A DNA stretch of 29,187 nt. Source: Fimbriimonas sp. (GTDB lineage Bacteria > Armatimonadota > Fimbriimonadia > Fimbriimonadales > Fimbriimonadaceae). Where the stretch lies: contig JAUJNV010000009.1 of assembly GCA_030447945.1 (NCBI GenBank), forward strand, positions 1 to 29,187, written 5' to 3'. The translations under genes and the position numbers were made by a program. The notes below the pieces were generated by a model. The model was not told the DNA's origin. It was given only the letters and a program-made list of their open reading frames with translations, and did no database searches. Positions 1,119 to 25,084 of this stretch are shown here, piece after piece; position 1 is the stretch's first letter; every line of letters starts with the position of its first letter.

Positions 1119-1186
1119 AGGGGTGTTGGGTGTTGGGTGTTGGGTCTTCGGATCCGGCCCAATACCTAACACCCAACACCCTCCCC
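1119..1186. repeat. Heptanucleotide repeat hairpin upstream of recO
   Basis: The left arm holds three exact TGTTGGG units (1124-1144). The right arm (about 1157-1186) is a near-perfect reverse complement with units such as CCCAACA and CCTAACA. The arms are nearly 30 nt and the short apex includes TTCGGATC. The right arm runs up to the base before the recO ATG, so no Shine-Dalgarno sequence fits in front of recO. It resembles heptanucleotide STRR elements described in cyanobacteria. Confidence 0.85.
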
Positions 1187-1939
1187 ATGCCCGAATCCAC
1201 CGTCCACGCCATCGTTCTGCGCCGTCGCGATTCGGGGGAATCGGATCGGCGGCTGACGCTCCTGACGGCGGAGCTGGGGAAGATCGACGCCGTGGCAAAG
1301 GGGGCGCGTAAGGGCGGCTCCCGCCTCGCGGGCTCCTCCGATCCGCTGAGCGTGTCGATTATGAGTCTGGCCGAAGGGAAGCGGAACCGCTTCGTCACCC
1401 AGGCCCAGCCTCTGACGAGCTTTCGCCGTTTACGCACGGATTACGACCGCCTGAGCTACGCCCTCTCTCTGTGCGAGCTCTACGCCGCCGTGGTCCCCCT
1501 CGACCAGCCCTTCCCGGAGGCGCACGAGCTGCTGCTCGCCTCGCTCCGGCAACTGGAAAGCCACGAGAAGCCCCTCGTCGCCCTCGTGTGGGCGCAGGTC
1601 GCGCTGCTCTCGATCAGCGGCTTCCTTCCCCAGTTCGCCGCCTGCGTCGTCACCGAACGCCCCGCCGTCGAGCCGCTCCCCTTCCTCTCGCCCCGCGCGG
1701 GGGGCTACGTCTGCGAGGAGGCCGCCCGTGGCTACACCGACCGCGTGCGCGTGCGCGCGGAGGTTCTGATCGGCCTCACCAAGCTCGCCGAGCTAGAGGA
1801 GCCCCCCGCCCACCTCAAGTTCGCCGAAGACTCCCTCGCCGCCCTCGCCCCCTTCTGGCACCACATCGCCGAGTCGCCGCTGCCGGCGAACGAGAGCGTG
1901 GTGAGGGAGGTGAAGCATGGGGAGGGCGTTGGGCGTTAG
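1187..1939 (+). CDS. recO: DNA repair protein RecO
   Basis: RecO works in RecF-pathway recombinational repair: it binds ssDNA and SSB, anneals strands and helps load RecA with RecR. The 250-residue product has the N-terminal OB-fold (about residues 1-80) with the family motif KGARKGGSRLAG at 38-49, then the helical C-terminal domain. The zinc site of many RecO proteins looks degenerate: only single cysteines remain where CxxC pairs are expected (AACVVTE and GYVCEEA). The ATG at 1187 gives the expected N-terminus; longer in-frame extensions run through the repeat and the upstream gene. The last residues (HGEGVGR) and the TAG stop are encoded by the downstream heptanucleotide repeat. Assignment is by recognition of sequence pattern. 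Confidence 0.9.
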   Translation: MPESTVHAIVLRRRDSGESDRRLTLLTAELGKIDAVAKGARKGGSRLAGSSDPLSVSIMSLAEGKRNRFVTQAQPLTSFRRLRTDYDRLSYALSLCELYAAVVPLDQPFPEAHELLLASLRQLESHEKPLVALVWAQVALLSISGFLPQFAACVVTERPAVEPLPFLSPRAGGYVCEEAARGYTDRVRVRAEVLIGLTKLAELEEPPAHLKFAEDSLAALAPFWHHIAESPLPANESVVREVKHGEGVGR

Positions 1940-2040
1940 GCGTTGGGGCCTTGGGGCGTTGGAGAAGGCTCCAGAGTGCCTTCAACGCTTCAATGCTTCA
2001 ACGCCTCAACGCCCAACACCTAACGCCCAACGCCCTCCCG
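1919..2040. repeat. Long heptanucleotide repeat hairpin between recO and the peptide-binding protein gene
   Basis: The left arm reads GGGCGTT, GGGCGTT, AGGCGTT and then 8-nt variants (1924-1960). The right arm (about 1990-2040) is its reverse complement with mismatches, and a block of about 20 nt at the base is perfect. The inner part continues pairing (GCGTTGGAGAAGGC with GCCTTCAACGC), leaving a loop of about 8 nt. The stem covers the recO stop codon and ends just before the TAAACT box of the next gene. Its unit is close to that of the element on the other side of recO. Confidence 0.85.
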
Positions 2041-2043
2041 GAG

Positions 2044-2049
2044 TAAACT
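2044..2049 (+). promoter_or_regulatory. Putative -10 box (TAAACT) for a leaderless transcript
   Basis: TAAACT lies 8 nt before the ATG at 2058, so transcription would begin at or next to the start codon. No Shine-Dalgarno sequence lies between them. The same TAnnnT arrangement precedes several other genes here. No convincing -35 hexamer was found; the hairpin repeat occupies that region. Confidence 0.5.
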
Positions 2050-2057
2050 CTTAACCT

Positions 2058-3628
2058 ATGCGACCCTTTATCCTCCTCGCCGCCTTGGCCGCTTTGGCGA
2101 CCGTCGGCGGATGCGGCAAGGGGAACTTCTCCCAACGCACCAACGAAGGCAAGGCGAACGTCTTGCGCTACCCCATCGTGAGCATCACCACGCTGGACCC
2201 CCACCGGGTGCAGGATGGCGACACGCTCGACGTCCTCCAGCAGGTGTTCGAAGGGCTCGTCACTTGGGGTGAGGACAATAAGGTCCGCCCCAATCTAGCG
2301 GAGAAGTGGGAGGTCTCGCCGGATGGCAAGACTTACACCTTCACCCTGAAGAAGGGCGTGAAGTTTCACAACGGGGAGCCCGTGACCGCCGACGACTTCA
2401 AGTACTCCTTCGACCGCGTCTGCGACCCGGCGCTGAAGTCCGCGACCGTGGAGTCTTACCTGAACGACATCGTAGGCGTCATGGACGTGGTGAACAGCAA
2501 GGCCGACTCCGTGGGGTGCAGGTCGTGGATCCGCAGACGCTGACCATCACCCTCGTCGCTCCGCGCCCCTACTTCCTGGGCAAGCTGACCTTCGCCACCT
2601 CCCACGTCGTCTCAAAAAAGGCGGCAAAGAAGGGGGGACCAGATCGACAGCGTCGCGGAGATGGTCGGAACCGGCCCCTTCCGCGCCAGCGGTTCGCGCC
2701 CGAGCAGCTAATCGTGCTCGCCGCGAACCAGTACCGCGACAGCGCGCCCAAGATCGCCAAGATCGAGCGCCCGACCATCGGAGATCCCGCCACGCAGCTC
2801 AACAAGTACCGCGGCGAGCTCGACATCGTATCCGGCTGGACCGCCAGAACGTCGCCGGCATGCGGATCCCAAGTTCAAAGACCACGTCCAGTTCTTCGAC
2901 CGCCCCGCGCTCTGGTACATCGGCGAACGGCGGGGCGTATAAGCCGTTCGCCGACCGGCGGGTGCGGCGCGCTTCGCGATGGCGATCGACCGCGAGAAGA
3001 TCGTCGCGAAGCTGGGCGGCATCAACACCATCGCCAACGGCATCTCCCGCCGGGCGTGCTCGGCCACCGGCCGGACGTCAAGGCGATCCCGTACGACCCT
3101 GACGCCGCCCGCGCCCTCCTCGCCGAGGCGGGCTTTAAGGACGGGGAAGGGGCTGCCTCGGATCACCATGACCTTCCGCGAGGGGATGCCGGACATCCGC
3201 ATCGTGGCGGAGACGGTGGCGAGAGCAGGCTCAAGAGCAATCTCGGGTCCAGATCGGTACCCAGTCCATGCAGTGGGGCGCCTACCTGGATAAGCACAAT
3301 AAGAAGGAGCAGGCCTTCTTCCACATGCGCTGGGGCGCGGACTACCTCGATCCGGAAAACTTCCTGAGCCTCCTGCTCGCGAGCTATGGGGCGCAGAACA
3401 AGATCAATTACAAGAACGAGGCGTACGACGCGCTTGCCGCCAGGCCGACTCGACGTTGGACGAAGCGACCCGCCTGAAGCTTTACGCCCAGGCGGAGGAT
3501 ATGGTGGTGCAGGACGCGCCCTTCATCCCCGTCTACTTCCAGAAGGACGCGGAGCTGATCAACCCGAGGGTGAAGGGCATCCGCAACTCCTCTTCGGGCA
3601 CCTGCACACGACCACGAGTCTGGAGTAA
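2058..3628 (+). CDS. ABC transporter substrate-binding lipoprotein, family 5 (oligopeptide type), multiply frameshifted
   Basis: A solute-binding protein of the OppA/DppA family (SBP_bac_5), which presents peptides or similar ligands to an ABC importer. The N-terminus is a lipoprotein signal with lipobox VGGC (Cys19). Family pattern is clear across frames: TLDPHRVQDGD and VFEGLV near the start, LAEKWEVSPDGKTYTF, VKFHNGEPVTADDFKYSFDR, then FADRRVRRA and AIDREKIV in the middle. Near the C-terminus come FHMRWGADYLDPENF and a final segment to the TAA at 3626-3628. The frame breaks at about 2515 (GGGG where five G are expected), 2638, 2692, 2845, 2930-2970, 3050, 3140, 3230, 3445 and 3590. Total length, about 523 codons, is normal for the family. 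No permease or ATPase gene of the importer is adjacent. Because family sequence resumes after each break, sequence error is more likely than decay. Confidence 0.8.
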
Positions 3629-3632
3629 TCAA

Positions 3633-4865
3633 ATGCCCCGCCGCCCCCGGACCCTCATCGAGCGCGCGGACCAGAAGCGCCCCGAAGAGGGTCCGGCTTA
3701 CCATCCCGTCGACCCGCCGCGCGACCACCGCCCCAGCGGCCTTCCGGCCTGGCAGAGCAACGGCGGCGCGGGACGGCGTCATCCGGATCGCGCGCGCCCG
3801 CTATCGTTCGAGTGCGAGGTCCCCGAGGCGGGCGGCAGCCTCCTCCGGCTCTACCTGCTAGGAGTTTTCGCGCTCCACGCCACCGCCGAAGCAGAGGCTC
3901 CCGGCACCCTTGGCGCAAGCCTTCAGCTCGCCGGGGAGGGAGACCGGCCGGTGCTGCGCCAAGAGCTGCTGAACGGACGCCACTACGCCGACGCCCGTTG
4001 CCTCGAGCCTCTCTGCCGCATGCTCGGGGACGGCACGAGCCTGGAGACGGCGGGCGTCTGCGAGATAGGCGGCGCGCTCGCCCGGGTGGATCTGCTCACC
4101 TTCGACGTGCCCCACGGGATCGCCGCGAGGAAGGTCCGCTTCAAGGATCTCGGTAGCCCCGCCTCATTCGCGTTGTTCGACGTGTTCTTCGAGTTCGAAG
4201 CGCCCAAGGGCTGCCCCTTCCGCTCCGGCGGGGGCAGCGTGCCGCTCTCGGAGTTGGGGGCGGTGGTGCGGGTCGGCGACCGGGTGCGCTTTCACAAGGC
4301 CCTCGACGGCCTAGAGAGCGCGCTGCTGGAGGCGGAGGACCTAGACGAGGCTCGGGGGCAGGCGCTGACGTTCCTCGCCGTGGCGACCGCCGCCACTCTC
4401 GAAATGGGCGGCGAGCGCGCGATGCACCTGATGACCCTGGAGGCGGCGCGGGAGATGGACCGCGTGGAGACGAAAGGAGAGATCGTCGAGGTCGCCCGCC
4501 GGGCCATCGAGGAGGTCACAGCATCTCTCTTCCGTCCCGTCGAGGGCTCCTCGTCCCACCTCGTGGATCGCGCGCTCGCGATCGTGGAGCGCAACTTCGC
4601 CCGCGACCTAAACGACGCCACCGTGGCCGCGCAGCTTGGGCTCAGCACCTCCCACTTCCGCTTCCTCTTCCGCCAGACCACCGGCCAGCCGTTCCACCGC
4701 TACCTCGTGAATCTCCGCCTGGAAAAGGCGCGGCGGATGCTGGTCGAGGGGGACGAGCCGGTGTCCGAAGTCGCCCGCGCCGTAGGCTTCGCCGGCCTCT
4801 CCCACTTCTCCCGCGCCTTCGCCCTACGCTTCTCCGCCAGCCCTACGGCGATCCGGCGAGCTTAG
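3633..4865 (+). CDS. AraC-family transcriptional regulator with N-terminal beta-rich region
   Basis: The last 100 or so of 410 residues form a typical AraC DNA-binding domain: a first helix-turn-helix (DATVAAQLGLSTSHFRFLFR), the signature RYLVNLRLEKARRML, and a second one (PVSEVARAVGFAGLSHFSRA). The N-terminal 200 residues alternate hydrophobic strands and resemble the beta-sandwich modules found with carbohydrate-active proteins (LYLLGVFALHATAEA, then TFDVPHGIAARKVRFKD); this likeness is an impression only. A helical linker at about 230-300 precedes the DNA-binding part. The ATG at 3633, 4 nt after the stop of the peptide-binding protein, is the first start after that gene; the frame is open further upstream only because it overlaps it. 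It could regulate the upstream gene or a sugar pathway; the ligand is unknown. Confidence 0.8.
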   Translation: MPRRPRTLIERADQKRPEEGPAYHPVDPPRDHRPSGLPAWQSNGGAGRRHPDRARPLSFECEVPEAGGSLLRLYLLGVFALHATAEAEAPGTLGASLQLAGEGDRPVLRQELLNGRHYADARCLEPLCRMLGDGTSLETAGVCEIGGALARVDLLTFDVPHGIAARKVRFKDLGSPASFALFDVFFEFEAPKGCPFRSGGGSVPLSELGAVVRVGDRVRFHKALDGLESALLEAEDLDEARGQALTFLAVATAATLEMGGERAMHLMTLEAAREMDRVETKGEIVEVARRAIEEVTASLFRPVEGSSSHLVDRALAIVERNFARDLNDATVAAQLGLSTSHFRFLFRQTTGQPFHRYLVNLRLEKARRMLVEGDEPVSEVARAVGFAGLSHFSRAFALRFSASPTAIRRA

Positions 4866-5093
4866 GGATGTGGTTCGTAGTTTGTAGTTTGTCGTCCTGG
4901 GTTGATCTTCAAGATTCATCCGCCGAAGGCGAATAAATCTTGAAGATCAACTGATCGCTAGCGAAGGACCGGCGCGAGGCGCCACGGCAAGAAGGCGGCC
5001 CTTGCCTCTACTCGCTATGCCGCGCCGGGACATCGCACCGAGTCTCTACTAACTCCGAGACCCGGCCCTCCTCGCTAACCTTCCGCCCCCCCC
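4866..5093. other. Structured intergenic region between convergent genes
   Basis: No gene is visible. It holds two exact GTAGTTT units (4877-4890) followed by GTCGTCC. A perfect 16-bp stem pairs 4901-4916 with 4936-4951 and has a nested CGCC/GGCG apex. A second fold pairs CCGGCGCG (4969-4976) with CGCGCCGG (5021-5028) and encloses GGCAAG/CTTGCC (4986-4991 with 5001-5006). Being between convergent genes, the first stem may act as a bidirectional terminator, although no T-run follows it. Confidence 0.5.
4901..4951. terminator. Candidate bidirectional terminator hairpin
   Basis: The arms GTTGATCTTCAAGATT and AATCTTGAAGATCAAC are perfectly complementary (16 bp). The 19-nt apex contains a nested CGCC-GAA-GGCG hairpin. 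It sits 36 nt after the AraC-type gene stop and about 140 nt beyond the moxR stop on the other strand. The absence of a T-run leaves its role uncertain. Confidence 0.45.
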
Positions 5094-6041
5094 TCACCGT
5101 GGCACGACCTGGGCGTCCAGAAGCCCCGTCAGCACCCCGTCCACCGTCAGGCCCTCGACCTCCGCCTCGGGGCGGAGGAGGACGCGGTGGCGCAGGACGG
5201 GGAGGGCGAGCTCCTTGACGTCGTCGGGGATGACGAACTCGCGGCCGCGGAGGGCGGCGATCGCCTTGGAACAGTTCAGCAGGGCGATGCCCGCGCGGGG
5301 CGAGCCGCCGACGAGGACGTCGGCGGACTGGCGGGTGGCGCGGACCGTGTCGTAGATGTAGTCGAAGACCTTGTCTTCGACGACGACGTTTCGCACCTGA
5401 TCCTGCATCGCCTGAAGGTCGCCCGGAGTCACTACCGGCTCGATGCCCGCCTCGTCGAGGCTCTGCGGGCGGAATCCGCCGTGGTGGCGACGGAGGACGC
5501 TCAGCTCGGCCTCGCGCTCCGGATACTCGACGATGACCTTCATCAGGAACCGGTCCTGCTGCGCTTCCGGCAGCGGGTACGTGCCCTCGAAGTCGATGGG
5601 GTTCTGGGTCGCGAAGACGAGGAAGGGGGGAGGAAGGGTGTGGGGCTCCCCGCCGATGGTGACGCGGCGCTCCTCCATCGCCTCCAAAAGGGCGGCTTGC
5701 GTCTTAGGCGGCGTGCGGTTGATCTCGTCCGCCAGGAGGACGTTCACGAAGACGGGCCCCTGGCGAAGCGTGAACTCGCCCGTGCGTGGGTCGAGAACGT
5801 GGGTGCCGACCACATCGCTGGGCATGAGGTCCGGCGTGAACTGGATGCGGCCGTACTCCAGCGCGAGGGTCCGCGAGATGGCCCGTACCAGAAGGGTCTT
5901 GGCGAGGCCGGGGAAGCCCTCGAGCAGAACGTGCCCATTAGCGAGCACGGCGACGAGCACCTGCTCGACAACCCGCTCCTGGCCCGCGATGGCCTTCCCG
6001 ACTTCCGCGCGAATGCGCTGGGAGAGTAACTCGACGCTCAC
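5094..6041 (-). CDS. MoxR-family AAA+ ATPase
   Basis: MoxR ATPases are chaperone-like AAA+ proteins that help assemble or activate partner proteins, often von Willebrand factor A proteins. The 315-residue product shows the MoxR Walker A variant GFPGLAKT (42-49), Walker B LLADEIN (102-108), sensor-1 ATQNP (144-148) and the conserved PLPEAQQDRF stretch. It has normal family length. The GTG start at 6041 gives MSVELLSQRI, with AGQE at 19-22 as expected. The usual DUF58 and VWA partner genes are not downstream, because the next gene in that direction is the convergent AraC-type gene. The upstream side faces the divergent ABC ATPase across a 70-nt hairpin repeat. Confidence 0.92.
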   Translation of the reverse strand: MSVELLSQRIRAEVGKAIAGQERVVEQVLVAVLANGHVLLEGFPGLAKTLLVRAISRTLALEYGRIQFTPDLMPSDVVGTHVLDPRTGEFTLRQGPVFVNVLLADEINRTPPKTQAALLEAMEERRVTIGGEPHTLPPPFLVFATQNPIDFEGTYPLPEAQQDRFLMKVIVEYPEREAELSVLRRHHGGFRPQSLDEAGIEPVVTPGDLQAMQDQVRNVVVEDKVFDYIYDTVRATRQSADVLVGGSPRAGIALLNCSKAIAALRGREFVIPDDVKELALPVLRHRVLLRPEAEVEGLTVDGVLTGLLDAQVVPR

Positions 6042-6048
6042 GCACCGG

Positions 6049-6121
6049 ATGATGGCTGATTGTTGATGGCTGATGGGTGACGACCTCCCTCACCCATCAG
6101 CCATCACCCATCAGCTATCAT
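6049..6121. repeat. Heptanucleotide repeat hairpin between divergent genes
   Basis: The left arm reads GATGGCT, GATTGTT, GATGGCT, GATGGGT (6051-6078), exactly 7 nt apart. The right arm (6090-6121) is its reverse complement with a few mismatches; the arms are about 30 bp around a loop of about 10 nt. It fills nearly all the space between moxR and the ABC ATPase gene. The right end contains TATCAT (6116-6121), 12 nt before the ATPase ATG, which could serve as a -10 box. Confidence 0.85.
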
Positions 6122-6133
6122 TTTAGGTCCCGC

Positions 6134-6886
6134 ATGCTCGAAGTCCACGGCCTGGTTAAGCAGTACAAAAAGTTTCGCGCGGTGGACGATCTGAGCTTCA
6201 CGATCCGCCCGGGGGAGATCGTCGGCCTGATCGGGCCGAACGGAGCCGGGAAGACTACCGCTTTACGGTGTATCGCAGGCATCCTGCGGCCCACGGACGG
6301 CACGATCCTCATCAACGGGCACGACGTGGTGCGGGACCAGGCGAGGGCCAAGGGGGGGCTGGCGTTCGTGCCCGAGGTCCCCAGCCTTTACGAGCTGCTC
6401 ACGGTGGACGAGCACATGCGGTTCGTCGCGATGTGCTTCGACACCCTCCCGATCTACGACCGGATGAAGGACGAGCTCCTCGCTCGGTACTCGTTGACTG
6501 AGAAGAAGAACGACCTCGTCGCCACCCTCAGTAAAGGCATGCGCCAGAAGCTTTCCGTCGCCTGCGCGCTCGTCCACGCGGCGAACGTGATGCTCTTCGA
6601 CGAGCCCCTGATCGGCATCGACCCTCAAGGGGCGAAGGAGCTGAAGAACGAGATCATCCACGCGAAGGAAGGGGGGGCGGCGGTTCTCATCTCGACGCAC
6701 CTGCTCGACACGGCCGAGCGTCTGTGCGACCGGGTGATCGTGCTGCGACGGGGTCGCAAGATCGAAGAGGGCACGCTCGCGGAGCTTCAGGAGCGGGCGG
6801 GAATGGCGGGAAGGAGCCTGGAGGACGTTTTCCTCGTGCTCACCAACGAGGAGGGCGATGAAACCGCTGGCGTTCCTCTGGGGTAG
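6134..6886 (+). CDS. ABC exporter ATP-binding protein
   Basis: The nucleotide-binding subunit of an ABC exporter, 250 residues. Walker A is GPNGAGKT (34-41), the signature is LSKGM (132-136), Walker B is VMLFDEP with Asp156-Glu157, and the switch histidine is in STHLL (about 189). At the usual Q-loop position the sequence is FVPEVPSLYE, with Glu where Gln is usual. The ATG at 6134 is chosen because the conserved N-terminus (MLEVHGLVKQYKKF) begins there; the longer open frame lies in the hairpin repeat. The 3' end overlaps the permease gene start (6858) by 29 nt, so the two are coupled. Confidence 0.92.
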   Translation: MLEVHGLVKQYKKFRAVDDLSFTIRPGEIVGLIGPNGAGKTTALRCIAGILRPTDGTILINGHDVVRDQARAKGGLAFVPEVPSLYELLTVDEHMRFVAMCFDTLPIYDRMKDELLARYSLTEKKNDLVATLSKGMRQKLSVACALVHAANVMLFDEPLIGIDPQGAKELKNEIIHAKEGGAAVLISTHLLDTAERLCDRVIVLRRGRKIEEGTLAELQERAGMAGRSLEDVFLVLTNEEGDETAGVPLG

Positions 6887-8512: not shown

Positions 8513-8519
8513 TGCCTCC

Positions 8520-8525
8520 TATAAT
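8520..8525 (+). promoter_or_regulatory. Possible -10 box (TATAAT)
   Basis: An exact TATAAT lies 7 nt after the ABC permease stop and 76 nt before the ATG at 8602. A second AT-rich hexamer (TAGAAT, 8534-8539) follows. No good -35 element is visible. If active it would give the SecD-like gene its own promoter with a leader of about 70 nt. Confidence 0.3.
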
Positions 8526-8601
8526 CCGAGCGAGTAGAATCTCTTCTGCTGGGAGCGAACGATCCGCGCGCTCGGGGCGTTGCGTACTTGCAGGTAGAAA
8601 G

Positions 8602-9738
8602 ATGAAGGTGCGCACCTCCACGAAGATCGCCCTCGCGTTCGTAACCTTTGGGGTCGTCACGTACGGCGGGTACCACGTCATCACCGAGCGAACGGTGATG
8701 CGCGAAAGTTTGCCGAGCTTGTTCCCGGCGACGTGAACCTCATTGGGATTCCGCCCGAATCGGGCTACTCGATCATCGTCGCCAACCAGATGGCCCAGCT
8801 CGTAGAGAGGTCGGGCGACTTCGAGTCGGGCTCCGGCGGACAGGAGGGCGCGGCGGAAGGCGCGATCAAAAAGCGCCTGCCGATCAAGGACATGCTCAGC
8901 GGCATGCGCGGCGAAGCGGCGCCCCTGGCGCGGTTCGTCGCGGCGCTGAACGACATGAGCGAAAACGACGAGACCTGGCCGCCGGTGCGGATCGTTTGGA
9001 CGGCCGAGCGGCTGAAGAAGGCGCTCGGCGGGGACAAGCGGGAAGAAGCCGCCCTCGTGCGCGACCTCAACGTGAAGCTGGACGGCACGCCCCTCAGCAC
9101 GCTGCGTCCCTCGGCGCTGCAGAACGGAATCATCGTCGACACGCCCGTTAAGGTCCAGGTCGGCTTCGGGAACTCGCCCCGCTGGGGTGGTCTGCCGCGT
9201 CCAAGAGCCGTACAAGCCCAGCCTCATGAGGGACGTGGAGGCGGCGTACAAGGACAAGCCCAACGTCGATCGGAACGTTCAGGCGGGATACTATGCAACC
9301 TTCGCGCGCGAGGTGCTCGACGGGTCGCGTATCCGCGAAGACATTCGGGCCGCCCTCACGGAAAAGATCTCGGACGACGTGGCGCGAAAAAGGGCCCAGG
9401 CGCCGGAAAAGGTGCTGCGGACCGCGAAGATCGTGGTCAACGAGAACCATATCGTCGACGCGGGCTATCGTCCCTATAACGCGACCAACGGCGAGCGGAT
9501 GTTCGACCTCACGGTAGAGCTGACCGACGAGGGCCGCCGAAGGCTGTGGCAGTTCTCCAAGCCGCGCGTGGGCAGCCAGCTCCTGCTGACCGCGGGCGGG
9601 ATCCCCATCGCTGCCCCGCGGATCGGCCACGAACTGGCGCAAGGCGAGCTGACGATCACGCAGATGCGCGACGAAGGTCTCGTCCGGGACGCGGTCGATC
9701 TCCTGAAGCGAGGCCGGGCGCGGGCTGCAGCGCGATGA
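8602..9738 (+). CDS. Membrane-anchored protein with SecD P1-like C-terminal domain, frameshifted
   Basis: About 379 residues when read across breaks. The N-terminus (KIALAFVTFGVVTYGGYHVI) is one membrane anchor or signal segment; the rest is probably extracytoplasmic. The middle part is rich in charged residues (about 60-190). Near the C-terminus, FDLTVELTDEGRRRLWQF, then LLLTAGGIPIAAPRI and GELTIT, follows the order of the SecD P1 head: a strand with a 'T.eG' motif, the 'G..i.aP.i' strand and an 'itg' turn. That likeness is by eye only. One break is at 8707 (AAA where AAAA restores REKFAELVPGDVNL); a second is near 9175. It lacks the six-helix SecD membrane domain, so it is not a SecD subunit. 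It follows the ABC exporter genes on the same strand. Confidence 0.65.
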
Positions 9739-15612: not shown

Positions 15613-15783
15613 TTCCCTCCCCTTGCCCGGATGGTTCGTGCCGGAGAGGGGGAGGGCAGGGTGGGGGTTCCGGAAAGTCTCTCTTTCTACCCAGGCTCGG
15701 TCGAAGAAGCCACCGCACGGAACCTCCACCCCCTGCCCCCTCCCCCTCCCGCGCAAGAACCATCGCGGCAAGGGAAGGGGGTC
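15613..15783. repeat. Palindromic REP-like element, full copy
   Basis: The left arm (about 15613-15672) and right arm (about 15718-15783) are inverted copies of about 60 nt around a 45-nt spacer. Each arm runs from a C-rich end through a TGGTTCGT or TGGTTCTT core to GAGGGGGAGGG and then CAGGG-GTGGRGGTTCCG at the inner edge. Another full copy lies at 26412-26635 and a half copy at 20041-20104. Confidence 0.75.
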
Positions 15784-17053: not shown

Positions 17054-17572
17054 ATGAATCGCAAGGATCTCGGGTTTGTCGCGAGCCGTATCATGGCGAT
17101 AGTCGTCGCGCTCGCGATAGGACGGATCATGATGGGGATCGTCTTGACGGGGCCGTTCCAAGCCCAGATAGCGAACAGCGAGTATCTGGGTCGCTCGGCG
17201 AGCACGGTTCGTGCGGTGCTCTTAGCAATCTGTGGTGGTTTTGCGATGCTGGGGGCCTTCCTGTGGTTCCGGGCGGATGTGTTCGGGGGGCCAGAAGAAG
17301 CCAAAGAGAATACCAACCGACTCCCGTTCGACGCGGTTGGGTTACGGGACGCCCTGTTCTCCTGCGTGGGCTTGTACTTCGCGGTCAGCGGAATCGCCGG
17401 CCTTGTCGAATTCGGCGTGGATTACCTCCGCATTCCAAGGGAGACGCGCGACCTGCTCGTGCAGGCGAAATCCGAGTGGGTGTACTATGTGACGACGGCC
17501 GTAGTCGGCGGAGCGATCCTCTACTGGACCATGTTTCGTCGTCGGCAGCTCCATGAGGAACCGGAGTTATAG
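17054..17572 (+). CDS. Four-TM membrane protein of unknown function
   Basis: A 172-residue protein with four hydrophobic segments at about 12-32, 52-72, 99-120 and 142-160, and a charged C-terminal tail (FRRRQLHEEPEL). The loop between helices 2 and 3 is acidic. It begins 36 nt after the M28 gene on the same strand. I do not recognise the family. Two small hairpins follow the stop. Confidence 0.65.
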   Translation: MNRKDLGFVASRIMAIVVALAIGRIMMGIVLTGPFQAQIANSEYLGRSASTVRAVLLAICGGFAMLGAFLWFRADVFGGPEEAKENTNRLPFDAVGLRDALFSCVGLYFAVSGIAGLVEFGVDYLRIPRETRDLLVQAKSEWVYYVTTAVVGGAILYWTMFRRRQLHEEPEL

Positions 17573-17881
17573 AGCTGCTGCGGCTCTGTCCCCATCCTCA
17601 TTGGAGGGTTACGCCCGCAGGGCGTGTAGTCGTCGCGCCCGGCGACGCCTGGGCTTTTCTCAAGGCACGCGATTCCTTACGGAGCCGCCGAGCCATTGGC
17701 TATGGAGCGAATTGCCGATATGCCCGACATCGGATCACCGCGCCCTCATCTCGGCGAAGGCCTGAGGTCTTGGAGCCTGAAAAGTTATCTGATCCTCTAG
17801 CGACCTCGTCCGGAGCTTCTCGTCGTGCGTTTCGTGAGCGGCTACCGCGACCTAAGCACGCTCTTGGAACCGTAGCGTCTG
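17573..17881. other. Convergent intergenic region with terminator-like hairpins
   Basis: No gene is supported. Two small hairpins follow the membrane protein stop: ACGCCC-GCA-GGGCGT (17611-17625), and a CGTCGC/GCGACG stem just after it whose downstream side leads to GGGCTTTT. The second is a fair candidate for a weak terminator. The remainder shows no repeat or ORF I can support. Confidence 0.45.
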
Positions 17882-19681
17882 TTAAAGCCCCACCCCCGAC
17901 GCTCCCGACGAGATGATGACCGGGGGGTCCTTGAGGCCCGCCTTGTCCCGCGCGGCTCGTCGCCTTCGCACATGGGCGAGGAGGCCGGGGATGGCGTGGG
18001 GGGCGGTGCGGGGCTGGGCGAAGGCGCGGCCGAAGATGGGCCACATCGGCTCGATGTCGTGGGAGAGGTCGAAGACCATCACGCCCTGGGTGGAGGCGCA
18101 GGCGGCCTGGAGGACGTCCTGAAGGCCCTCGGGGTTGTCCTTGAAGTCCGCGAGCGAGATGCCCGCGTAGGACCACGCCTCGTCGCGAACAGCCCGATTC
18201 GTGAGCATGCCGCCCGCCTCGACCGTCGAGCCGATCGGGTGGGCCTTCGACATCGCCTCGTGGATCGTGGCGACAGGATAGTAGCAGCCGGTGATGAGGA
18301 AGTCGACCAGGGGCGCGAAGCCCGTCCTCTGGTAATCCGGGGTCAGGAACCAGAAGCCGGACTCGAAGCGGGGTGAGGCCCAGTTGTTGCCGAACGCGGG
18401 GTACTCGCCGTACCAAGAGCCCGCGTAGACGCCGAGCTGCGCGCCCGGCCGTATTTGGGCGAGCTCCGTTCGCACCGTGCGCACAAACTCTTTCAGCGTG
18501 GCCGCCCGCCAGGCCATCCACGCGTCGTAGTACGGTCCCGGCCGGATGCCGCGCTGGAGCGTCGGGGTGATGGTGAACTCGAATACGTCCTCCGGCCAGC
18601 GCAGCGGACGGCCCACGCGCTTCTCGAAGAGCGAGCGGGTGATCTCGCTGAAGTCCGCGTTGATCCCCCCGTAGCGGAGGCGGTCGTCGTAGATCAGGCC
18701 GTCCACAGCGTAGTTGGTGACCACCTCCCGTACGATGTCCAGCGCGTACCGCTGCACCTCCGGGTGGTTCGGGTTCATCATCAGCGGGATCTGATAGAGG
18801 GGCCGCTCCGAGATCGGCAGGAACGAGGCCTGGGTCGCGAACTCGATCCGCAGTCCCGGCACCGCGTGTAAGCGCAAGAACTCGGCTCCGGCGTCCGTGC
18901 CGTAGAGGACGACGGCGTTTCGGGGCAGCGGCGTGGGCGTGGTGCGAACGAGCCGCGAGAGCACCCGGCTCTGCTTCGTGTCGACGATCACGGCGGCGGC
19001 GTTGGGCGAGTCGGCGGGGAGCCGGTCAGGGGTCGTGAAGACGCTGACGGCGGCAGGGTCCGCCGCGTTGGGGGTGATCGAGAGGGGGAAGGCGTCCTTC
19101 GAGTACGGCGAGCGAATGATCGGCGTCGGCTCGTAAATCACCGTCTGCTGGTCCAGCCGCCCGTAGCCGGGGCCGACGAGGAACATCCGGTGCCCTTCGC
19201 TGAAGGCGTTCATGCTCACGAAGAGCGTGAGCCCGACGCCCTTGATCTCGCGCACCATCGCGGCGAGCGGGTCGTACTCCAGCGCCATCGTCTTGCCCCG
19301 CCACTCGGTCAGCTTCGGCGCGAGCTTGCTGGGATAGACGACCTGGCCGGAGATCGGCTTGATGTCGAAGACGACGGTGTTGAACCCGGCGGCCTTGATC
19401 TGCTGCGCGAGCGCGGCGATCTTCTCGTCGCTGTCGTAGCGCTCGATGTTCGCCGTGGCGTCGATCCAGAGGATACGGGCTTGGGCGTTGCGGTGGCGGG
19501 CGACCTGCTGCGCGACGCCGAACCCGTTGCCGTACGCGTCCATCACCACCGCCGGGATCGTCGGCAACGGAGCCATGAGCTCGAAGCGGGTCTTGGGAAG
19601 GGGCGGGTTCACGGCGGGACGCGGGGTAGCGCCGCCCTGGGCCGTCGCAAGGGCCACGGCGAGCGCGGGGAGGGGCAACAT
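17882..19681 (-). CDS. GHL10-type glycoside hydrolase-like protein, exported
   Basis: A protein of 599 residues from the ATG at 19681, which gives a short signal peptide (MLPLPALAVALATAQ); the frame is open further upstream, but that part lies in a repeat-like region. It resembles the glycosyl-hydrolase-like 10 family (a TIM-barrel fold related to DUF187/GHL10). The family phrase is NPNHPEVQRYALDIVREVV followed by YAVDGLIYDDRLRYGG, where the two Asp are the likely active-site region. Other barrel-like segments are AAGFNTVVFDIKP near the N-terminus and LGVYAGSWYGEYP, VDFLITGCYYP and GVMVFDLSHD towards the C-terminus. The substrate is unknown; polysaccharide or cell-wall glycan is an inference. 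The frame is intact. Confidence 0.8.
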   Translation of the reverse strand: MLPLPALAVALATAQGGATPRPAVNPPLPKTRFELMAPLPTIPAVVMDAYGNGFGVAQQVARHRNAQARILWIDATANIERYDSDEKIAALAQQIKAAGFNTVVFDIKPISGQVVYPSKLAPKLTEWRGKTMALEYDPLAAMVREIKGVGLTLFVSMNAFSEGHRMFLVGPGYGRLDQQTVIYEPTPIIRSPYSKDAFPLSITPNAADPAAVSVFTTPDRLPADSPNAAAVIVDTKQSRVLSRLVRTTPTPLPRNAVVLYGTDAGAEFLRLHAVPGLRIEFATQASFLPISERPLYQIPLMMNPNHPEVQRYALDIVREVVTNYAVDGLIYDDRLRYGGINADFSEITRSLFEKRVGRPLRWPEDVFEFTITPTLQRGIRPGPYYDAWMAWRAATLKEFVRTVRTELAQIRPGAQLGVYAGSWYGEYPAFGNNWASPRFESGFWFLTPDYQRTGFAPLVDFLITGCYYPVATIHEAMSKAHPIGSTVEAGGMLTNRAVRDEAWSYAGISLADFKDNPEGLQDVLQAACASTQGVMVFDLSHDIEPMWPIFGRAFAQPRTAPHAIPGLLAHVRRRRAARDKAGLKDPPVIISSGASGVGL

Positions 19682-19814
19682 CGGAAGGCGTTGTACCTCT
19701 TTGTCCTCCCGCAGGGTCTCTCCCCCACCCAACCTCGTGCGTAGCGGGAGCTGGGGTGGAGATTGGGAAAGCAGGCGCGGCAAGGGTTTAGTGTTGGGCG
19801 GCAGGGGGCGGGGA

Positions 19815-19842
19815 ACAGGCGACAGGCGACGGGGGACAGGGG
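19815..19842. repeat. Heptanucleotide array
   Basis: ACAGGCG, ACAGGCG, ACGGGGG, ACAGGGG follow one another exactly 7 nt apart. No complementary arm was found. The array ends about 10 nt before the inverted-repeat element. Confidence 0.65.
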
Positions 19843-19852
19843 GCCCGGAGCA

Positions 19853-19983
19853 TGGCCATTTAGTTAAGCGTCTTTGCGCTCCTTCCGCTCGTCAGGCGTG
19901 TCTCGGAAGAGAGCCTGCCGCGCGTGGGAAACGCCCCGAGCCACCGAGGCAATTCACGCTCTGGAGGTTTAACTAAACGGCTA
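19853..19983. repeat. Inverted-repeat element, MITE-like candidate
   Basis: TTTAGTTAA (19859-19867) and TTAACTAAA (19969-19977) are perfect inverted copies; pairing extends outward with mismatches (TGGCCA against CGGCTA). They enclose about 100 nt with no ORF. ATGG occurs just at both outer edges and could be a target duplication. The AT-rich termini contrast with their GC-rich surroundings. Confidence 0.4.
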
Positions 19984-20040
19984 TGGGGCAGGGGACATGG
20001 ATGGACTGGTACATCCCCCGTCACCCATCACTCTCCCGAT

Positions 20041-20104
20041 CTCCACCCCCTGCCCCGTCCTCAAAGACGAACCACATTGAGGACGGGGATCTGGAACCCT
20101 CACC
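20041..20104. repeat. Half copy of the palindromic REP-like element
   Basis: CCCCGTCCTCAA (20053-20064) pairs perfectly with TTGAGGACGGGG (20077-20088). Flanks read CTCCACCCCCTG on one side and GGAACCCTCACC on the other, matching the inner-edge motif of the full copies. The apex contains the reverse complement of TGGTTCGT, as in the copy at 15613-15783. Confidence 0.6.
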
Positions 20105-20150
20105 TCTAGTCGCTGTCCAGTGTCGAGCCACAAGGGAGATGGGCAGCGGT

Positions 20151-20252
20151 TTAGGCCTTGGCGAACGTAACCCGCCGTTTGCTCGGCTTGCGGGTGAGCA
20201 CGCATTGCCCCGGCTCGTCATCCTCCAGACGGCTCGTCGTTCTTCGCAGCAT
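20151..20252 (-). pseudogene. Relic of a second ProRS C-terminal tail
   Basis: A 33-codon frame whose last 24 codons copy the proline-tRNA ligase C-terminus: DDEPGQCVLTRKPSKRRV, then TFAKA, against DNDPGQCVLTGKPSERRV and VFAKAY in the intact tail at 20494-20566. About 70% of bases match over 72 nt by hand alignment. Many differences are synonymous third positions, so this came from a separate, once-functional ProRS rather than from a fresh duplication. The terminal Tyr codon is replaced by a stop (TAC to TAA). The first nine codons do not align. A TAAGCA sits 6 nt before its ATG, one base off the TAnnnT pattern, so a tiny expressed ORF is not excluded. Confidence 0.6.
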
Positions 20253-20288
20253 CCGCCCTGCTTAAAGAGTGGTGGGCGTGATGGGCTC

Positions 20289-20462
20289 TCACTGCCGACG
20301 CAGCTTGCCGCTCGCCCAGAGCGCCAGCATCAGGGCCAAGCCCGCTGCCACCGCGCTTAGTCCCATCCCAAGACCCTCAGATCCGCGGAGATATAGCCAA
20401 AAGCAGCCGAAGCCACAAAGGAATCCGGCCAGCACCACCAGCGCTTTGGACGCAAGGGCCAT
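20289..20462 (-). CDS. Small two-TM membrane protein
   Basis: A 57-residue ORF with two hydrophobic segments: residues 5-24 (SKALVVLAGFLCGFGCFWLY) and 34-51, ending with a basic tail (GKLRRQ). TATTCT lies 9 nt before the ATG, similar to the start-proximal boxes of other genes here, which supports it as real. It sits between the intact proS end and the relic tail, on the same strand, starting 31 nt after the proS stop. The family is unknown; a chance hydrophobic ORF is possible. Confidence 0.5.
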   Translation of the reverse strand: MALASKALVVLAGFLCGFGCFWLYLRGSEGLGMGLSAVAAGLALMLALWASGKLRRQ

Positions 20463-20493
20463 CGCGCGCAAAGAATACCGCTGAAGACCAGCC

Positions 20494-22145
<1,652 letters not shown>

Positions 22146-22210
22146 TCTCCTTCTAGGCTTTGAAAGAGCCTTAGAGGCTCGCAATTCGTCGGCCCTCCGT
22201 CACACCTGGC

Positions 22211-23224
22211 CTAAAGCCAGCGGAAGCGGCGGAACAGGAAGAGGATCAGGCCGCCGGCCGCAAACATCAGGGCGAGCGCGAAGGGGTACCCGTATCGCCA
22301 TTTGAGCTCGGGCATGTGCTCGAAGTTCATCCCGTAGATGCCGGAGATCAGGGCCATCGTCATGAGCATCGTGGCGAGGACCGTCATCTTCTTCATGACC
22401 GCGCCGAGGTTGTTCGACACGGTCGAAAGATGCACGTCCAGCAGCGAGGCCAGGGTATCGCGGTTGAGGTCGGCGATCTCGCCGATTCTCAGGACGTGGT
22501 CGTACACGTCTTGGAAGTACCGCTTTGTTTCCTGGGGCACGAGCATCATGTCGCGCCGCAGCAGGGTGTTCAGGATGTCGCGCACGGGGGCGAGCCGTCG
22601 CCGGATCTCGAGCACGCGGCGCTTGAGCGCCAGCACGTTCGCGACCTGTCCCGTGTCGCCCGCGAAGATGATGTCGGCGAGCTCGTCCACCGCGTCCTCG
22701 GCGTCGTCGATGGCGGGGAAGTACGCGTCTACCAGGGCGTCCACGATCGAGTGCAAGAGGTCCGCCGGGGTGTCGCCCACGTGCTTGGGGCGCTTGATCC
22801 ACCGCGCGAAAATGGCGTCGACCTGGGGGACGTGCCGTCCCGCCACCGTGACGAGGGAATTCCCCTTGAGGAAGAACCCGACCTCCTCGAACTCGTCCTT
22901 CCCGTCTTGGAATCCCACCACCGCGGGGATCACGAGGAAGATGTGGTCGTCGTACTCCTGCAGCGTCGGGCGTTCGTCCGGGCTGAGCGAGTCCTCCACC
23001 GCAAGCTCATGAAAGCCCAGGCGATCTTGGAGCAGGCGGCGCGCGGCCTCCCGGTCGCGGGCGATGACGTCCACCCAAACGCGCTGCTCGCCGCGCGAAA
23101 TCGCCTCGACCGCTTGATCCTCCGTGAGACCGTTGCAGGCGATATCCGACACCATGCCGGCCGCCCGAAACTCGAGGGCCGTGGGTGAGCTCTCTGCTGC
23201 GGGAGCCTGCGTGGGAACGGTCAT
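22211..23224 (-). CDS. corA: CorA-family magnesium/cobalt transporter
   Basis: Pentameric Mg2+ channel of the inner membrane. The 337-residue protein has the large N-terminal cytoplasmic domain, the long helix, and two C-terminal membrane segments. The first (about 283-300) ends in the diagnostic YGMN motif (297-300), and an acidic/aromatic loop (FEHMPELKW) precedes the second (about 312-330). The C-terminus is basic (FRRFRWL). The ATG at 23224 follows a TAAACT box by 7 nt. The frame is intact. A heptanucleotide hairpin lies about 35 nt upstream of its start. Confidence 0.95.
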   Translation of the reverse strand: MTVPTQAPAAESSPTALEFRAAGMVSDIACNGLTEDQAVEAISRGEQRVWVDVIARDREAARRLLQDRLGFHELAVEDSLSPDERPTLQEYDDHIFLVIPAVVGFQDGKDEFEEVGFFLKGNSLVTVAGRHVPQVDAIFARWIKRPKHVGDTPADLLHSIVDALVDAYFPAIDDAEDAVDELADIIFAGDTGQVANVLALKRRVLEIRRRLAPVRDILNTLLRRDMMLVPQETKRYFQDVYDHVLRIGEIADLNRDTLASLLDVHLSTVSNNLGAVMKKMTVLATMLMTMALISGIYGMNFEHMPELKWRYGYPFALALMFAAGGLILFLFRRFRWL

Positions 23225-23231
23225 GGGGAGT

Positions 23232-23237
23232 AGTTTA
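23232..23237 (-). promoter_or_regulatory. Putative -10 box (TAAACT) for corA
   Basis: On the minus strand TAAACT is followed by 7 nt (ACTCCCC) and then the corA ATG. It is identical to the box before the peptide-binding protein gene. No ribosome binding site is visible. Confidence 0.5.
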
Positions 23238-23261
23238 GACGGGCGGGAGAGAGAGGTTCTT

Positions 23262-23356
23262 GATTTTGGATTTTGGGTTTTGGGTTTTGGGTTTTGGATT
23301 GGGAATGGAGGCTCCAGAATCCGGAAGTCGCCAATCCAAAATCCAAAATTTGTTCT
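23262..23356. repeat. Heptanucleotide repeat hairpin between the Nudix gene and corA
   Basis: Six units start exactly 7 nt apart from 23262: two GATTTTG, three GGTTTTG and GATTGGG. The right arm (about 23331-23356, CCAATCCAAAATCCAAAATT) is the reverse complement of the outer units, and GTTCTT near its end pairs with AGGTTCTT before the left arm. The left arm has extra units not matched on the right. The loop is about 28 nt. Confidence 0.8.
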
Positions 23357-23370
23357 TCAGGTAGCAGGAC

Positions 23371-23940
23371 TTATAGGGCAACGTGGGTTCGCATCCACAG
23401 GAGGGCGACGAGCGTCTTTCCGTCCTTGATCTCTCCCTCGTCGACCTTGCGAAGAGCGTCTTCGACGCTCAGGCGTACGATCTCCACGTCTTCGCCCTCC
23501 TCGCCGCCTCCAGCGCTAGCTTGGTCTTCGGCGCCGACCTCTCCGTAGTAGATGTAAAGCTTCTCCGACAGTCCTCCCGGCGAGGAGTAGAACTGCGCGG
23601 CCAAGCGCAAGTCGCGGACGCGGTATCCGGTTTCCTCGAGCGCTTCGCGCCGCGCCGCTTCCTCGGGGCTCTCGCCCGGATCGATGGAGCCTGCCACGAC
23701 CTCCACCAGAAACGGCTCGCCGTGGCGCAGGGTCGCGTAGCGGAACTGGCGCACCAGGAGCAGCTCGCCCGCCCCGCGGTCGTGCACGAGCACCGCCGCC
23801 GCGTCTCCGCGCTCAACGCACAGCCGATCGGTCGGATCGCTCAGGGAGCCGTCGGGGCGCTCGTACCGAACCGTCGCCCGATCCACCGCGAATCGCGCGT
23901 CGAGCACCCGCTCGACCTCCTGAACCTCCACTCTGCGCAT
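23371..23940 (-). CDS. Nudix hydrolase, ADP-ribose pyrophosphatase type
   Basis: Hydrolyses nucleoside diphosphate derivatives, most likely ADP-ribose or an ADP-sugar, using Mg2+. The Nudix box is perfect: Gly84, Glu90 and REALEETGY (98-106). The preceding ELLLVRQFRYATLRHGEPFLVEV-type strand pair, and Pro-Gly-Gly-Leu-Ser-Glu after the box (FYSSPGGLSEK), are typical of the NudF/ADPRase group. A 10-residue Gly/Glu insertion follows at about 141-150. The protein has 189 residues and an intact frame. The ATG at 23940 is preceded by TAAGCT at 6 nt. It is divergent from the esterase gene. Confidence 0.92.
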   Translation of the reverse strand: MRRVEVQEVERVLDARFAVDRATVRYERPDGSLSDPTDRLCVERGDAAAVLVHDRGAGELLLVRQFRYATLRHGEPFLVEVVAGSIDPGESPEEAARREALEETGYRVRDLRLAAQFYSSPGGLSEKLYIYYGEVGAEDQASAGGGEEGEDVEIVRLSVEDALRKVDEGEIKDGKTLVALLWMRTHVAL

Positions 23941-23946
23941 CGCGGT

Positions 23947-23952
23947 AGCTTA
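23947..23952 (-). promoter_or_regulatory. Putative -10 box (TAAGCT) for the Nudix gene
   Basis: On the minus strand TAAGCT is followed by ACCGCG and the ATG, a 6-nt spacing. The divergent esterase gene on the other side instead has a strong Shine-Dalgarno sequence. Confidence 0.5.
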
Positions 23953-24020
23953 CTGCCCGGTCGATAGTCGGAAAAAGCGGACCCAGGAAGCTATGGAGGT
24001 GGCGAGGCGTAGGAGAAGGT

Positions 24021-24990
24021 GTGATCAGGCCCGCCCTCTCCCTCGCCGTCGCTCTGCTCGGCGTCGCATGTGCTCCTCCGATTGCCGCGCCGCTCGGTCT
24101 GGGGCAGACGCCCGCGCGCGCGCCGGGGCGGTATGTCGAGACGGTGAAGGTGAACGGGGCGGAGCGGAGCTACATCCTTCGCGTGCCCCCTGCCTATGAC
24201 GGACGGAAGTCCCTGCCGCTCGTCGTCGTCCTCCACGGCTGGACGGCCAGCGCGGCCCTCGCCGAACAGTACACAGGCATGGCCACCAAGGCGGAAAAGG
24301 AGGGGTTCCTCCTGGCGGTGCCGGACGGAGTCGGCAGCCCTAAGGGGTGGAACACCGGCTTTCTCAACCTGGGCCTCAAGGGGACCGACGACGTCGCCTT
24401 TATCAAGGCGGTTCTCGACGGCGTAGAGCGCGACGTCCGGGTCGATCGGAGCCGCGTCTACATCGCGGGGCACTCGAACGGCGCGATGATGGCGCACCTG
24501 CTCGCCTCCTCGTTCTCCGACCGAGTCGCCGCCATCGGCGCGGTCGCCGGCACCATCGGCCTCCCCGAAGCCGGGAGGTGGCTTTATTACGATCCCCGAG
24601 CCGAAGTCGCCCGTGTCCGTGATTCTCATCCACGGCAAGAAGGACCCGACCGTCGCCTACGAATCCACCGCGTCCGCCTTGCTGCGCGGCATGTCGGCGC
24701 CCGAGACGGCCAAGTGGTGGGCGAAGAGAAACGGCACTTCCGGCAGCCCCCGCCGTCAGGAGATGAACGGGGGAACGTGGTGGTGGAGACGTACGGACCC
24801 GGCAAGAAGGGGAGCGGAGGTCGTCCTCGTGTCGATCGCCAACGGCCTCCACAACCGGCCCGGCGGTCTCACCCGCGCGGGGGCGGAGACGCTCACAGGC
24901 GTCGTCGCCGCCGACCTTCTCTGGGATTTCTTCAAGGCCCACCCCGAAGCGGAAATAGGCGGCGGGAGGGTTGAGGAGGTTGAGGGTTGA
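24021..24990 (+). CDS. LpqC-like esterase (PHB depolymerase/feruloyl esterase family), frameshifted
   Basis: An exported alpha/beta hydrolase. A hydrophobic signal (ALSLAVALLGVACA) leads to the family N-terminus (RSYILRVPPAYD). The oxyanion region is VVVLHGWTAS (about 68-77), the nucleophile elbow is GHSNGAMM (Ser152), the acid is expected in ILIHGKKDPTVAY, and the histidine is probably in ANGLHNRPGG. Breaks lie near 24580 (a G run before GGCTTTATTACG), 24775 and 24810, so the last third must be read across frames. AGGAG sits about 6 nt before the GTG start, the clearest ribosome binding site in the window. The last codons and TGA lie in a GGTTGAG repeat. Substrate is not determined; depolymerase or small-ester hydrolase are both possible. 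Confidence 0.75.
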
Positions 24991-25084
24991 GGTACAAGCC
25001 CTTCCCAGACCCCAGACCCCAGACCCCAGACCCCAGACCCCCAGACCCCAGACCCCAGACCCCAGACCCCCAGACCCCAGAACC
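24969..25084. repeat. Two adjacent heptanucleotide arrays
   Basis: GGTTGAG occurs at 24969, 24978 and 24985 and supplies the esterase stop codon. After a 14-nt gap, eleven CAGACCC units start at 25006, 25013, 25020, 25027, 25034, 25042, 25049, 25056, 25063, 25071 and 25078. The spacing 7-7-7-8 recurs twice, giving a 29-nt higher-order period (25013-25070). No complementary arm is present. Confidence 0.85.

What the first reader, a model, noticed from the sequence alone, without database searches (positions are those of the whole stretch)
1119..25084. A family of intergenic tandem repeats that keep a 7-nt period while changing unit sequence at every locus
Seven intergenic loci carry tandem units 7 nt apart: TGTTGGG (1124), GGGCGTT (1924), GTAGTTT (4877), GATGGCT (6051), ACAGGCG (19815), GATTTTG/GGTTTTG (23262), and GGTTGAG plus CAGACCC (24969-25084). 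Some loci include a few 8-nt variants. At four loci (1119, 1919, 6049, 23262) a second array in inverted orientation forms a long stem. The sequence is free to vary but the length is not, and the arms stay complementary. Heptanucleotide STRR sequences are known in cyanobacteria, where a few units recur genome-wide. Here each locus has its own unit, so a mechanism that copies 7-nt steps and inverts the array (template switching at a hairpin, or a repeat-associated polymerase) seems needed.
Basis: partly seen in the sequence, partly recalled or inferred. Interest (0 to 1): 0.72.

Follow-up and report, generated by a model that had tools for sequence, protein, structure and literature searches.

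The report
Seven-base repeat hairpins between genes
This bacterium carries, between its genes, short hairpins whose two arms are built from seven-base repeats; they appear to belong to families scattered through the genomes of some related bacteria, a variant of a known but unexplained bacterial repeat type.

Summary
In detail: period 7 stands out (10 segments against 0.1 expected), mostly at gene ends, and four loci fold into long hairpins. The window is from the Fimbriimonas group of Armatimonadota. The claim that each locus has its own, freely varying unit does not hold. In the relative G001 one unit, GTAAATC, recurs at dozens of places. Window units AACACCC and AAAATCC form hairpins in other genomes. 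Units share letters beyond chance.

In G001 the GTAAATC copies are mostly one element: four heptads, a CGGA-type core around a variable middle, four inverted heptads. All 25 pairs have the same arm order and 33 of 50 arms have exactly four units. Across genomes the G-rich arm comes first in 28 of 29 decidable pairs, though copies of a family are not independent.

Best reading: families of small dispersed REPIN/MITE-like hairpins that drift and expand by slippage. The mobiliser is unknown; Y1 transposases show no association. Heptad dominance and convergent heptad pairs are in print (PMC6344855, PMC4692102). Four-unit arms in a unit without G-quadruplex capacity, and polarity across units, look new.

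The parts
1121..1181 (.). Hairpin 1: (GGGTGTT)3-GGGTCTT, centre CGGATCCGG, inverted arm CCCAATA-CCTAACA-CCCAACA-CCC; between orf366 (stop 1115) and recO (start 1187)
   Evidence: CGGA/TCCG also found at the inner arm ends of many G001 hairpins
1920..2039 (.). Hairpin 2: GGGCGTT-type arms; 5' arm contains the recO stop codon (1937-1939); upstream of a SBP_bac_5 gene
   Evidence: gap 118 bp against 10-64 bp in 22 array-less relatives
4873..4892 (+). Short GTAGTTT array (about 2.5 units) 8 nt after the AraC-type ORF; marginal
   Evidence: score 10
6049..6121 (.). Hairpin 3: TGATGGC/TGATGGG arms of 32 nt with 9-nt loop, between divergent MoxR-type ATPase and ABC transporter genes
19802..19842 (+). 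ACAGGCG-type array (TRF scores it higher as 21 nt x 2.3) upstream of the GHL10 gene; no heptad partner arm seen
23262..23349 (.). Hairpin 4: GATTTTG/GGTTTTG arm (5.6 units) and inverted AATCCAA arm (2.4 units), between corA and a crudely called minus-strand gene at 23371-23940
   Evidence: same unit family forms hairpins in G143
24966..24992 (+). GGTTGAG array with indels, overlaps the 3' end of the esterase ORF
   Evidence: only (18% indels); not
25004..25085 (+). CAGACCC array, 11.4 units, 29-nt super-period (7+7+7+8), no inverted partner seen
1187..1939 (+). recO (DNA repair protein), anchor gene of the synteny test

Best explanation
The hairpin loci are members of several families of small, non-autonomous dispersed hairpin elements (REPIN- or MITE-like in behaviour) whose arms consist of about four heptads. 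Shown: the period, the hairpins, recurrence of the same unit at many places in a relative, fixed arm order there, a CGGA/TCCG core at many inner arm ends, and a longer recO-SBP gap where arrays sit. Inferred: copies spread by some transposase-like activity acting on the hairpin. After insertion, often at gene ends, replication slippage by whole units lengthens or shortens the arms, so the 7-nt frame is kept while letters drift. Single arrays are half-elements or slippage-expanded remnants. Why the pitch is 7 is not explained by any data here.
For: Dispersed copies: 337 overlapping hits of (GTAAATC)3 with up to 2 mismatches in G001. All 25 inverted pairs of that family found in the sampled loci are in the order GTAAATC then GATTTAC, and 13 of them aligned show sharp ends and unrelated flanks. 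33 of 50 paired arms have exactly four units. CGGA sits at the inner end of 14 of 26 G001 5' arms and TCCG at 15 of 26 3' arms, against 394 of 5006 (7.9%) control 20-mers. Three other G001 places are about 80% alike over the whole L008 element, middle included. Adjacent array pairs with inverted units: window 3 of 3; G001 15 of 43 in the contigs (36 of 87 with all G001 loci); G143 8 of 8; random unit pairs of the window and of G001 match inverted in 9% and 4%. Polarity: 28 G-rich-first, 1 C-rich-first, 24 ties. recO-SBP5 gap: 118 bp in the window and 173 bp in L008 against 10-64 bp in 22 array-less relatives. Patchy distribution: no period-7 segment in 40 of 42 relative loci; (GATNNNN)4GAT in 57 of 291 phylum genomes.
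Against: The dispersal evidence is from G001 and G143, not from the window's own genome, which is not held. No transposase is tied to the elements: Y1_Tnp is in 22 of 28 heptad-rich and 27 of 30 pattern-negative genomes, and five Y1 loci that I read have no array within 600 bp, some of them cut by contig ends. G050 has many arrays but only 1 inverted pair of 12, with 1 direct, and no four-unit peak, which fits plain slippage better. Unit sharing between genomes is weak: 5 shared pairs against 2.0 (maximum 6) for permuted letters. The orf366-recO gap shows no gain: array-less L001 has 125 bp against 71 in the window. All three Planktothrix pairs begin with a GATTT arm, opposite to the G001 order. 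No target-site duplication was seen by eye. Pairs of one family are not independent observations.
Confidence: 0.55

Rival explanations
1. Local origin: each array arises in place by replication slippage that favours 7-nt steps, and inverted arms arise by template switching (quasi-palindrome formation). Nothing is mobile.
For: Units change in frame within one array (G050, L117 5462-5615). The 29-nt super-period at 25004-25085 points to block duplication. G050 has few pairs and no four-unit peak. A polymerase-footprint idea for 7 is quoted in the discussion of PMC4692102. A snap-back on a G-rich nascent strand would also give G-first polarity (inference).
Against: Does not explain one unit at dozens of loci, 25 of 25 fixed order, exact four-unit arms and the shared core in G001. 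Arm variants differ within pairs such as L086 and L105, so those arms are not kept complementary by copying.
Confidence: 0.27
2. Selected structure: the hairpins or G-quadruplexes act as transcription or mRNA-end signals and are kept for that function.
For: Strong folds. The arrays at 1121, 1920, 4873, 23349 and 24966 lie within 25 nt of the end of an ORF or overlap it; the one at 23349 rests on a crude gene call. G4 motifs at 1120-1121 and, on the minus strand, at 1172 and 24999-25076.
Against: No terminator-like site falls on any locus, though that scan only allows loops of 3-8 nt and so cannot report the long-loop hairpins. Of six loci looked at, two match a G4 motif. GTAAATC has one G per unit yet shows the four-unit arms. 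40 of 42 relative loci do without.
Confidence: 0.12
3. A dedicated polymerase with a 7-nt template (telomerase-like reverse transcriptase) adds heptads step by step.
For: Fixed step with variable letters; sharp ends.
Against: No candidate enzyme was looked for. Many different units in one genome would need many templates; slippage explains step growth.
Confidence: 0.03
4. Assembly artefact of a short contig.
For: The window lies on a 31-kb contig whose origin is not told; parts of one SBP_bac_5 gene lie in two frames, so base errors are possible.
Against: The same anatomy occurs in independent genomes, and heptad arrays occur in Planktothrix plasmid records.
Confidence: 0.02

Closest known systems
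G-rich heptameric repeats GGGNATC / GGGGA(C/T)T of Xanthomonas and Nostoc (Rehm et al. 2015, PMC4692102; abstract and sections 3, 10, 11, 13, 14, 16 read)
   Same: 7-nt units with variable positions, mostly intergenic and close to ORF ends, preference for four units, convergent inverted pairs (70 cases in Xcc, 75 in Xac)
   Different: One unit type per genome was studied, and the four-unit preference was put down to G-quadruplex formation. Here many unit families share a genome, and four-unit arms also occur for GTAAATC, which has one G per unit. Nostoc had only a few paired repeats.
Tandem heptamers as the most abundant tandem repeats in intergenic regions of prokaryotes (SPADE, PMC6344855; passages read)
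   Same: Period 7 dominant in intergenic DNA, function unknown
   Different: No arms, core or polarity in the passages read
REPINs: REP doublets forming hairpins (Bertels and Rainey 2011, PMC3116915; abstract and passages read)
   Same: Two inverted repeats with a spacer, hairpin, dispersed between genes, insertion into existing elements
   Different: Arms are heptad arrays instead of a REP sequence; no RAYT gene found beside them here
TAACTGA direct repeats of Beggiatoaceae, cyanobacteria and Bacteroidetes (MacGregor 2015, PMC4679880; abstract and outline read)
   Same: Intergenic heptamer arrays, patchy across phyla
   Different: A single unit, 169 direct sets and one indirect repeat in the draft genome, mostly just upstream of start codons
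Heptamer satellites of Chloroflexus aurantiacus, (GATAGRA)n (PMC6749651; passages read)
   Same: One heptamer unit in 22 satellites of one genome
   Different: No hairpin pairs in the passages read

Membership tests
Heptameric intergenic SSR (as in PMC4692102, PMC6344855) | 7-nt period above chance | tested here: met
Heptameric intergenic SSR (as in PMC4692102, PMC6344855) | Located mainly between genes | tested here: met
   Crude gene calls (they missed recO): window 5 of 6, G001 31 of 38, G050 32 of 41 segments noncoding
G-quadruplex heptads GGGNATC / GGGGA(C/T)T | Unit GGGNATC or GGGGAYT with G-tracts | tested here: not met
   Window units differ; two of six loci match a G3 G4 motif
G-quadruplex heptads GGGNATC / GGGGA(C/T)T | Preference for four units | tested here: inconclusive
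   Peak at 4 in G001 (58 of 153 arrays; 33 of 50 GTAAATC arms) but not in G050; too few loci in the window
REPIN | Inverted doublet that folds into a hairpin | tested here: met
REPIN | Many dispersed copies in one genome | tested here: met
   G001 only; window genome not held
REPIN | Associated RAYT (Y1 transposase) gene flanked by the repeat | tested here: not met
   No presence/absence association. 5 Y1 loci (4 of 9 in G001, 1 of 2 in G050) read, none with an array within 600 bp; some are cut by contig ends
MITE | Terminal inverted repeats | tested here: met
   (G001)
MITE | Target-site duplication and a parent transposon | not tested
   Flanks were only looked at by eye; no empty sister sites available

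The most novel reading that the evidence does not exclude
Heptad hairpins form one class of mobile element, found in Armatimonadota and perhaps in cyanobacteria and Xanthomonas, whose mobiliser recognises the 7-nt pitch, the four-step arm and the arm polarity rather than a fixed letter sequence. Units could then be exchanged between families while the core and geometry stay. This would explain why heptamers dominate intergenic tandem repeats in bacteria.
Probability: 0.15. Interest if true: 0.82.

Novelty: new variant of a known kind. Interest (0 to 1): 0.5.

Why it matters
Tandem heptamers are reported as the most abundant tandem repeat in intergenic regions of many prokaryotes, with no clear clue to their function (PMC6344855). 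The four-unit preference in Xanthomonas and Nostoc was explained by G-quadruplex formation. The GTAAATC elements show the same four-unit arms with one G per unit, and arm polarity holds across units in the samples. If both stand, the question shifts from G-quadruplexes to a geometry of hairpin arms, and a dispersal hypothesis becomes testable in strains with many copies.

Tried and rejected
1. Own whole-genome spectrum: no genome is held for the window. 2. Y1 transposase (RAYT) as the driver: no association, no flanking arrays in five loci. 3. Arm co-variation by heptad-order shuffling: too few units; 0.08-0.09 at two window loci, uninformative at the other two and at L008; the L219 row was in the wrong register and is dropped. 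4. Residual period 7 outside arrays: masked lag-7 match rates are at or near those of neighbouring lags. 5. Unit sharing across genomes: not clearly above permuted letters. 6. Rfam: only tRNA-Trp at gathering scores. 7. Terminator scan: nothing on the loci. 8. Plasmid searches: none for 23262-23349, one weak partial Azospirillum hit for 1920-2039. The G001 element finds three Planktothrix plasmids, covering 29-50% of the query, by position its heptad arms. 50 kb of a Chlorohelix plasmid had no period-7 segment. 9. Papers: searches showed me no description of heptad hairpins in Armatimonadota or of polarity across units; the library lacks most subscription journals, and Mrazek 2007 and the original STRR papers were not read.
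Full report
Origin. The RecO protein of the window matches proteins named Fimbriimonas or Armatimonadota; 16 relatives that I aligned are 60-73% identical. Its contig is listed as 31,207 bases and no genome is held for it. Some genes were named with Pfam. The gene order orf366-recO-SBP-AraC is shared by many relatives.

The observation. My own scan scores matches of a base with the base 7 further on. At score >=10 it gives 10 segments at period 7 against 0.10 in 60 Markov shuffles, and 4 at period 8, all within two of the same loci. The GTAGTTT locus is marginal and the GGTTGAG stretch rests on TRF alone. Four loci fold far better than shuffles.

Relatives without arrays. I looked at 42 of the 58 loci (L001-L041 and L045). 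Only L008 (7 segments) and L020 (1) have period-7 segments at score >=12; the other 40 loci, 665,622 bases, have none. At the recO-SBP5 gap, 22 array-less relatives measure 10-64 bp, while the window has 118 and L008 173, both with heptads of different units. Four further relatives gave unusable gaps (two with other genes between, one misassigned, one overlapping), and in 14 one of the genes was not found; start codons were set by script. At the orf366-recO gap the window's 71 bp is not exceptional: array-less L001 has 125, and L008 has 87 without an array there. So DNA seems to have been added at one gap; the other says nothing.

Relatives with many arrays. In the genome of L008 (handle G001) a 170-kb sample at regular contig steps has 38 segments at period 7 and at most 2 at any other period from 4 to 13. 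A 400-kb sample of G050 has 41 at period 7 and at most 7 elsewhere; one shuffled copy of each gave 0 and 1 at period 7. In 12 further genomes, chosen for heptad hits, the pooled counts are 15 at period 7 and at most 3 at other periods; 4 of the 12 had none in the short stretches taken. The pattern (GATNNNN)4GAT occurs in 57 of 291 phylum genomes. The backward-read control also occurs in some genomes, so other heptads exist too. An earlier pattern, (CTCAACA)3 with up to 3 mismatches, was in 21 of 85 family genomes.

Units are neither private nor free. (GTAAATC)3 with up to 2 mismatches has 337 overlapping hits in G001 and none for its backward control. TTGGGTR arrays, the window's hairpin-1 type, have 84, control 5. 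The distinct units share a motif beyond letter permutations: G001 (all sampled contigs, array-selected ones included) 3.37 against a maximum of 2.99 in 20 permutations, G050 4.26 against 3.48. GAT is in 18 of 44 and 17 of 20 units against 8.7 and 5.3. This can be descent rather than function. A test of unit sharing between genomes was not significant: 5 against 2.0, maximum 6. Inside arrays, units change stepwise while the frame is kept, as mutation plus slippage would give.

The element in G001. Thirteen of the 25 pairs, chosen with short middles, were aligned: (GTAAATC)4-GCCGGA-middle-TCCGGC-(GATTTAC)4 is the consensus and the flanks are unrelated. All 25 pairs within 300 nt have this arm order; the space between arms is 30-234 nt, median 61; 21 further arrays of the family are unpaired. 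33 of 50 paired arms have exactly four units; 8 of 21 unpaired arrays do. Several middles contain TTGGACCTATTGG-like repeats, and L243 has a second hairpin in the loop. CGGA is at the inner end of 14 of 26 5' arms and TCCG at 15 of 26 3' arms, both in 12, against 7.9% in control 20-mers. Counted by hand from that list, CGGA is in 10 of 14 hairpins of the GTAAATC kind (GTAAATG included) and 4 of 12 of other units. Window hairpin 1 has CGGATCCGG at its centre; the other three window hairpins lack the core at their inner ends.

Polarity. With one strict definition (unit mismatch <=1, gap 3-160, duplicates removed) 53 inverted pairs were found: 28 with the G-rich arm first, 1 C-rich first, 24 ties. 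By source: window 3, G001 14 plus 22 ties, G050 1, G143 8, G227 1 plus 1 tie, others 1 C-first, Planktothrix 1 plus 1 tie. Window hairpin 1 is G-first too but its second arm scores below the limit. A looser definition gave 33 to 3 with 16 ties, and a partly overlapping set 12 to 2 with 3 ties. Copies of one family are not independent, so the sign-test p of 1e-7 overstates the case. The rule agrees with the convergent pairs reported for Xanthomonas (PMC4692102, section 10).

Recurrence of the window's families. AACACCC hairpins occur in G001 and G227, and AAAATCC hairpins in G143 (6 of its 8 pairs) and G050. The GTAAATC-type unit also occurs on Planktothrix plasmids: 150 kb gave 15 period-7 segments, 10 of this unit. 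All three loosely defined pairs there begin with a GATTT arm, opposite to the G001 order, which speaks against one inherited orientation for this unit.

What it is not shown to be. No enzyme is linked to the elements: Y1_Tnp is found in 22 of 28 heptad-rich and 27 of 30 pattern-negative genomes that I chose, and five Y1 loci had no array within 600 bp. No terminator-like site lies on the loci, within the limits of that scan. G050, with many arrays, few pairs and no four-unit peak, suggests that slippage alone can dominate in a genome.

What is known. [quoted passage not shown] Rehm et al. describe four-unit preference, heterogeneous units and convergent pairs for G-rich heptads (sections read). 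REPINs are the nearest model of dispersed hairpins (abstract and passages). New here, as far as nine searches of an open-access library go, are the multi-family heptad hairpins in Armatimonadota, the core shared by different units, four-unit arms in a unit with one G, and polarity across units.

Noticed in passing
window 4901-4951: Inverted repeat of 24-nt arms (92% complementary, 3-nt gap) just after the marginal GTAGTTT array.
   Followed up: no
window 26416-26633: Two nested inverted repeats (21 nt at 100% and 16 nt at 94%), the inner arms 137 nt apart; looks like another dispersed hairpin type.
   Followed up: no
window 15615-15779: 42-nt inverted repeat (83%) with CCCTCCCC-rich arms downstream of the tRNA-Trp gene.
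   Followed up: no
window 19753-20054: Nested inverted repeats around the ACAGGCG array, including CATGGCCATTTAGTTAAGC / GTTTAACTAAACGGCTATG.
   Followed up: no
window 2058-3367: Two parts of one SBP_bac_5 protein match in different frames of the window; frameshift or base error.
   Followed up: no
L008 about 5838-5876 and L082 about 3655-3700: Shared dispersed repeat of the CCTCTGCGCCTCTGCGT type beside or inside heptad arrays.
   Followed up: no
L209 about 9180-9330: A heptad hairpin framed by a second inverted pair of the CACAGAGGCACAGAGA type, so different short-period repeats are nested symmetrically.
   Followed up: no
L243 568-857: A second hairpin (ACAACGGCACAACG type) sits in the loop of a GTAAATC element.
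   Followed up: no
L276-L278 (Planktothrix plasmids): GATTTAC arrays mixed with GATTTGG and GATTGGGG-type units; some lie between genes annotated as DISARM or restriction-modification.
   Followed up: partly
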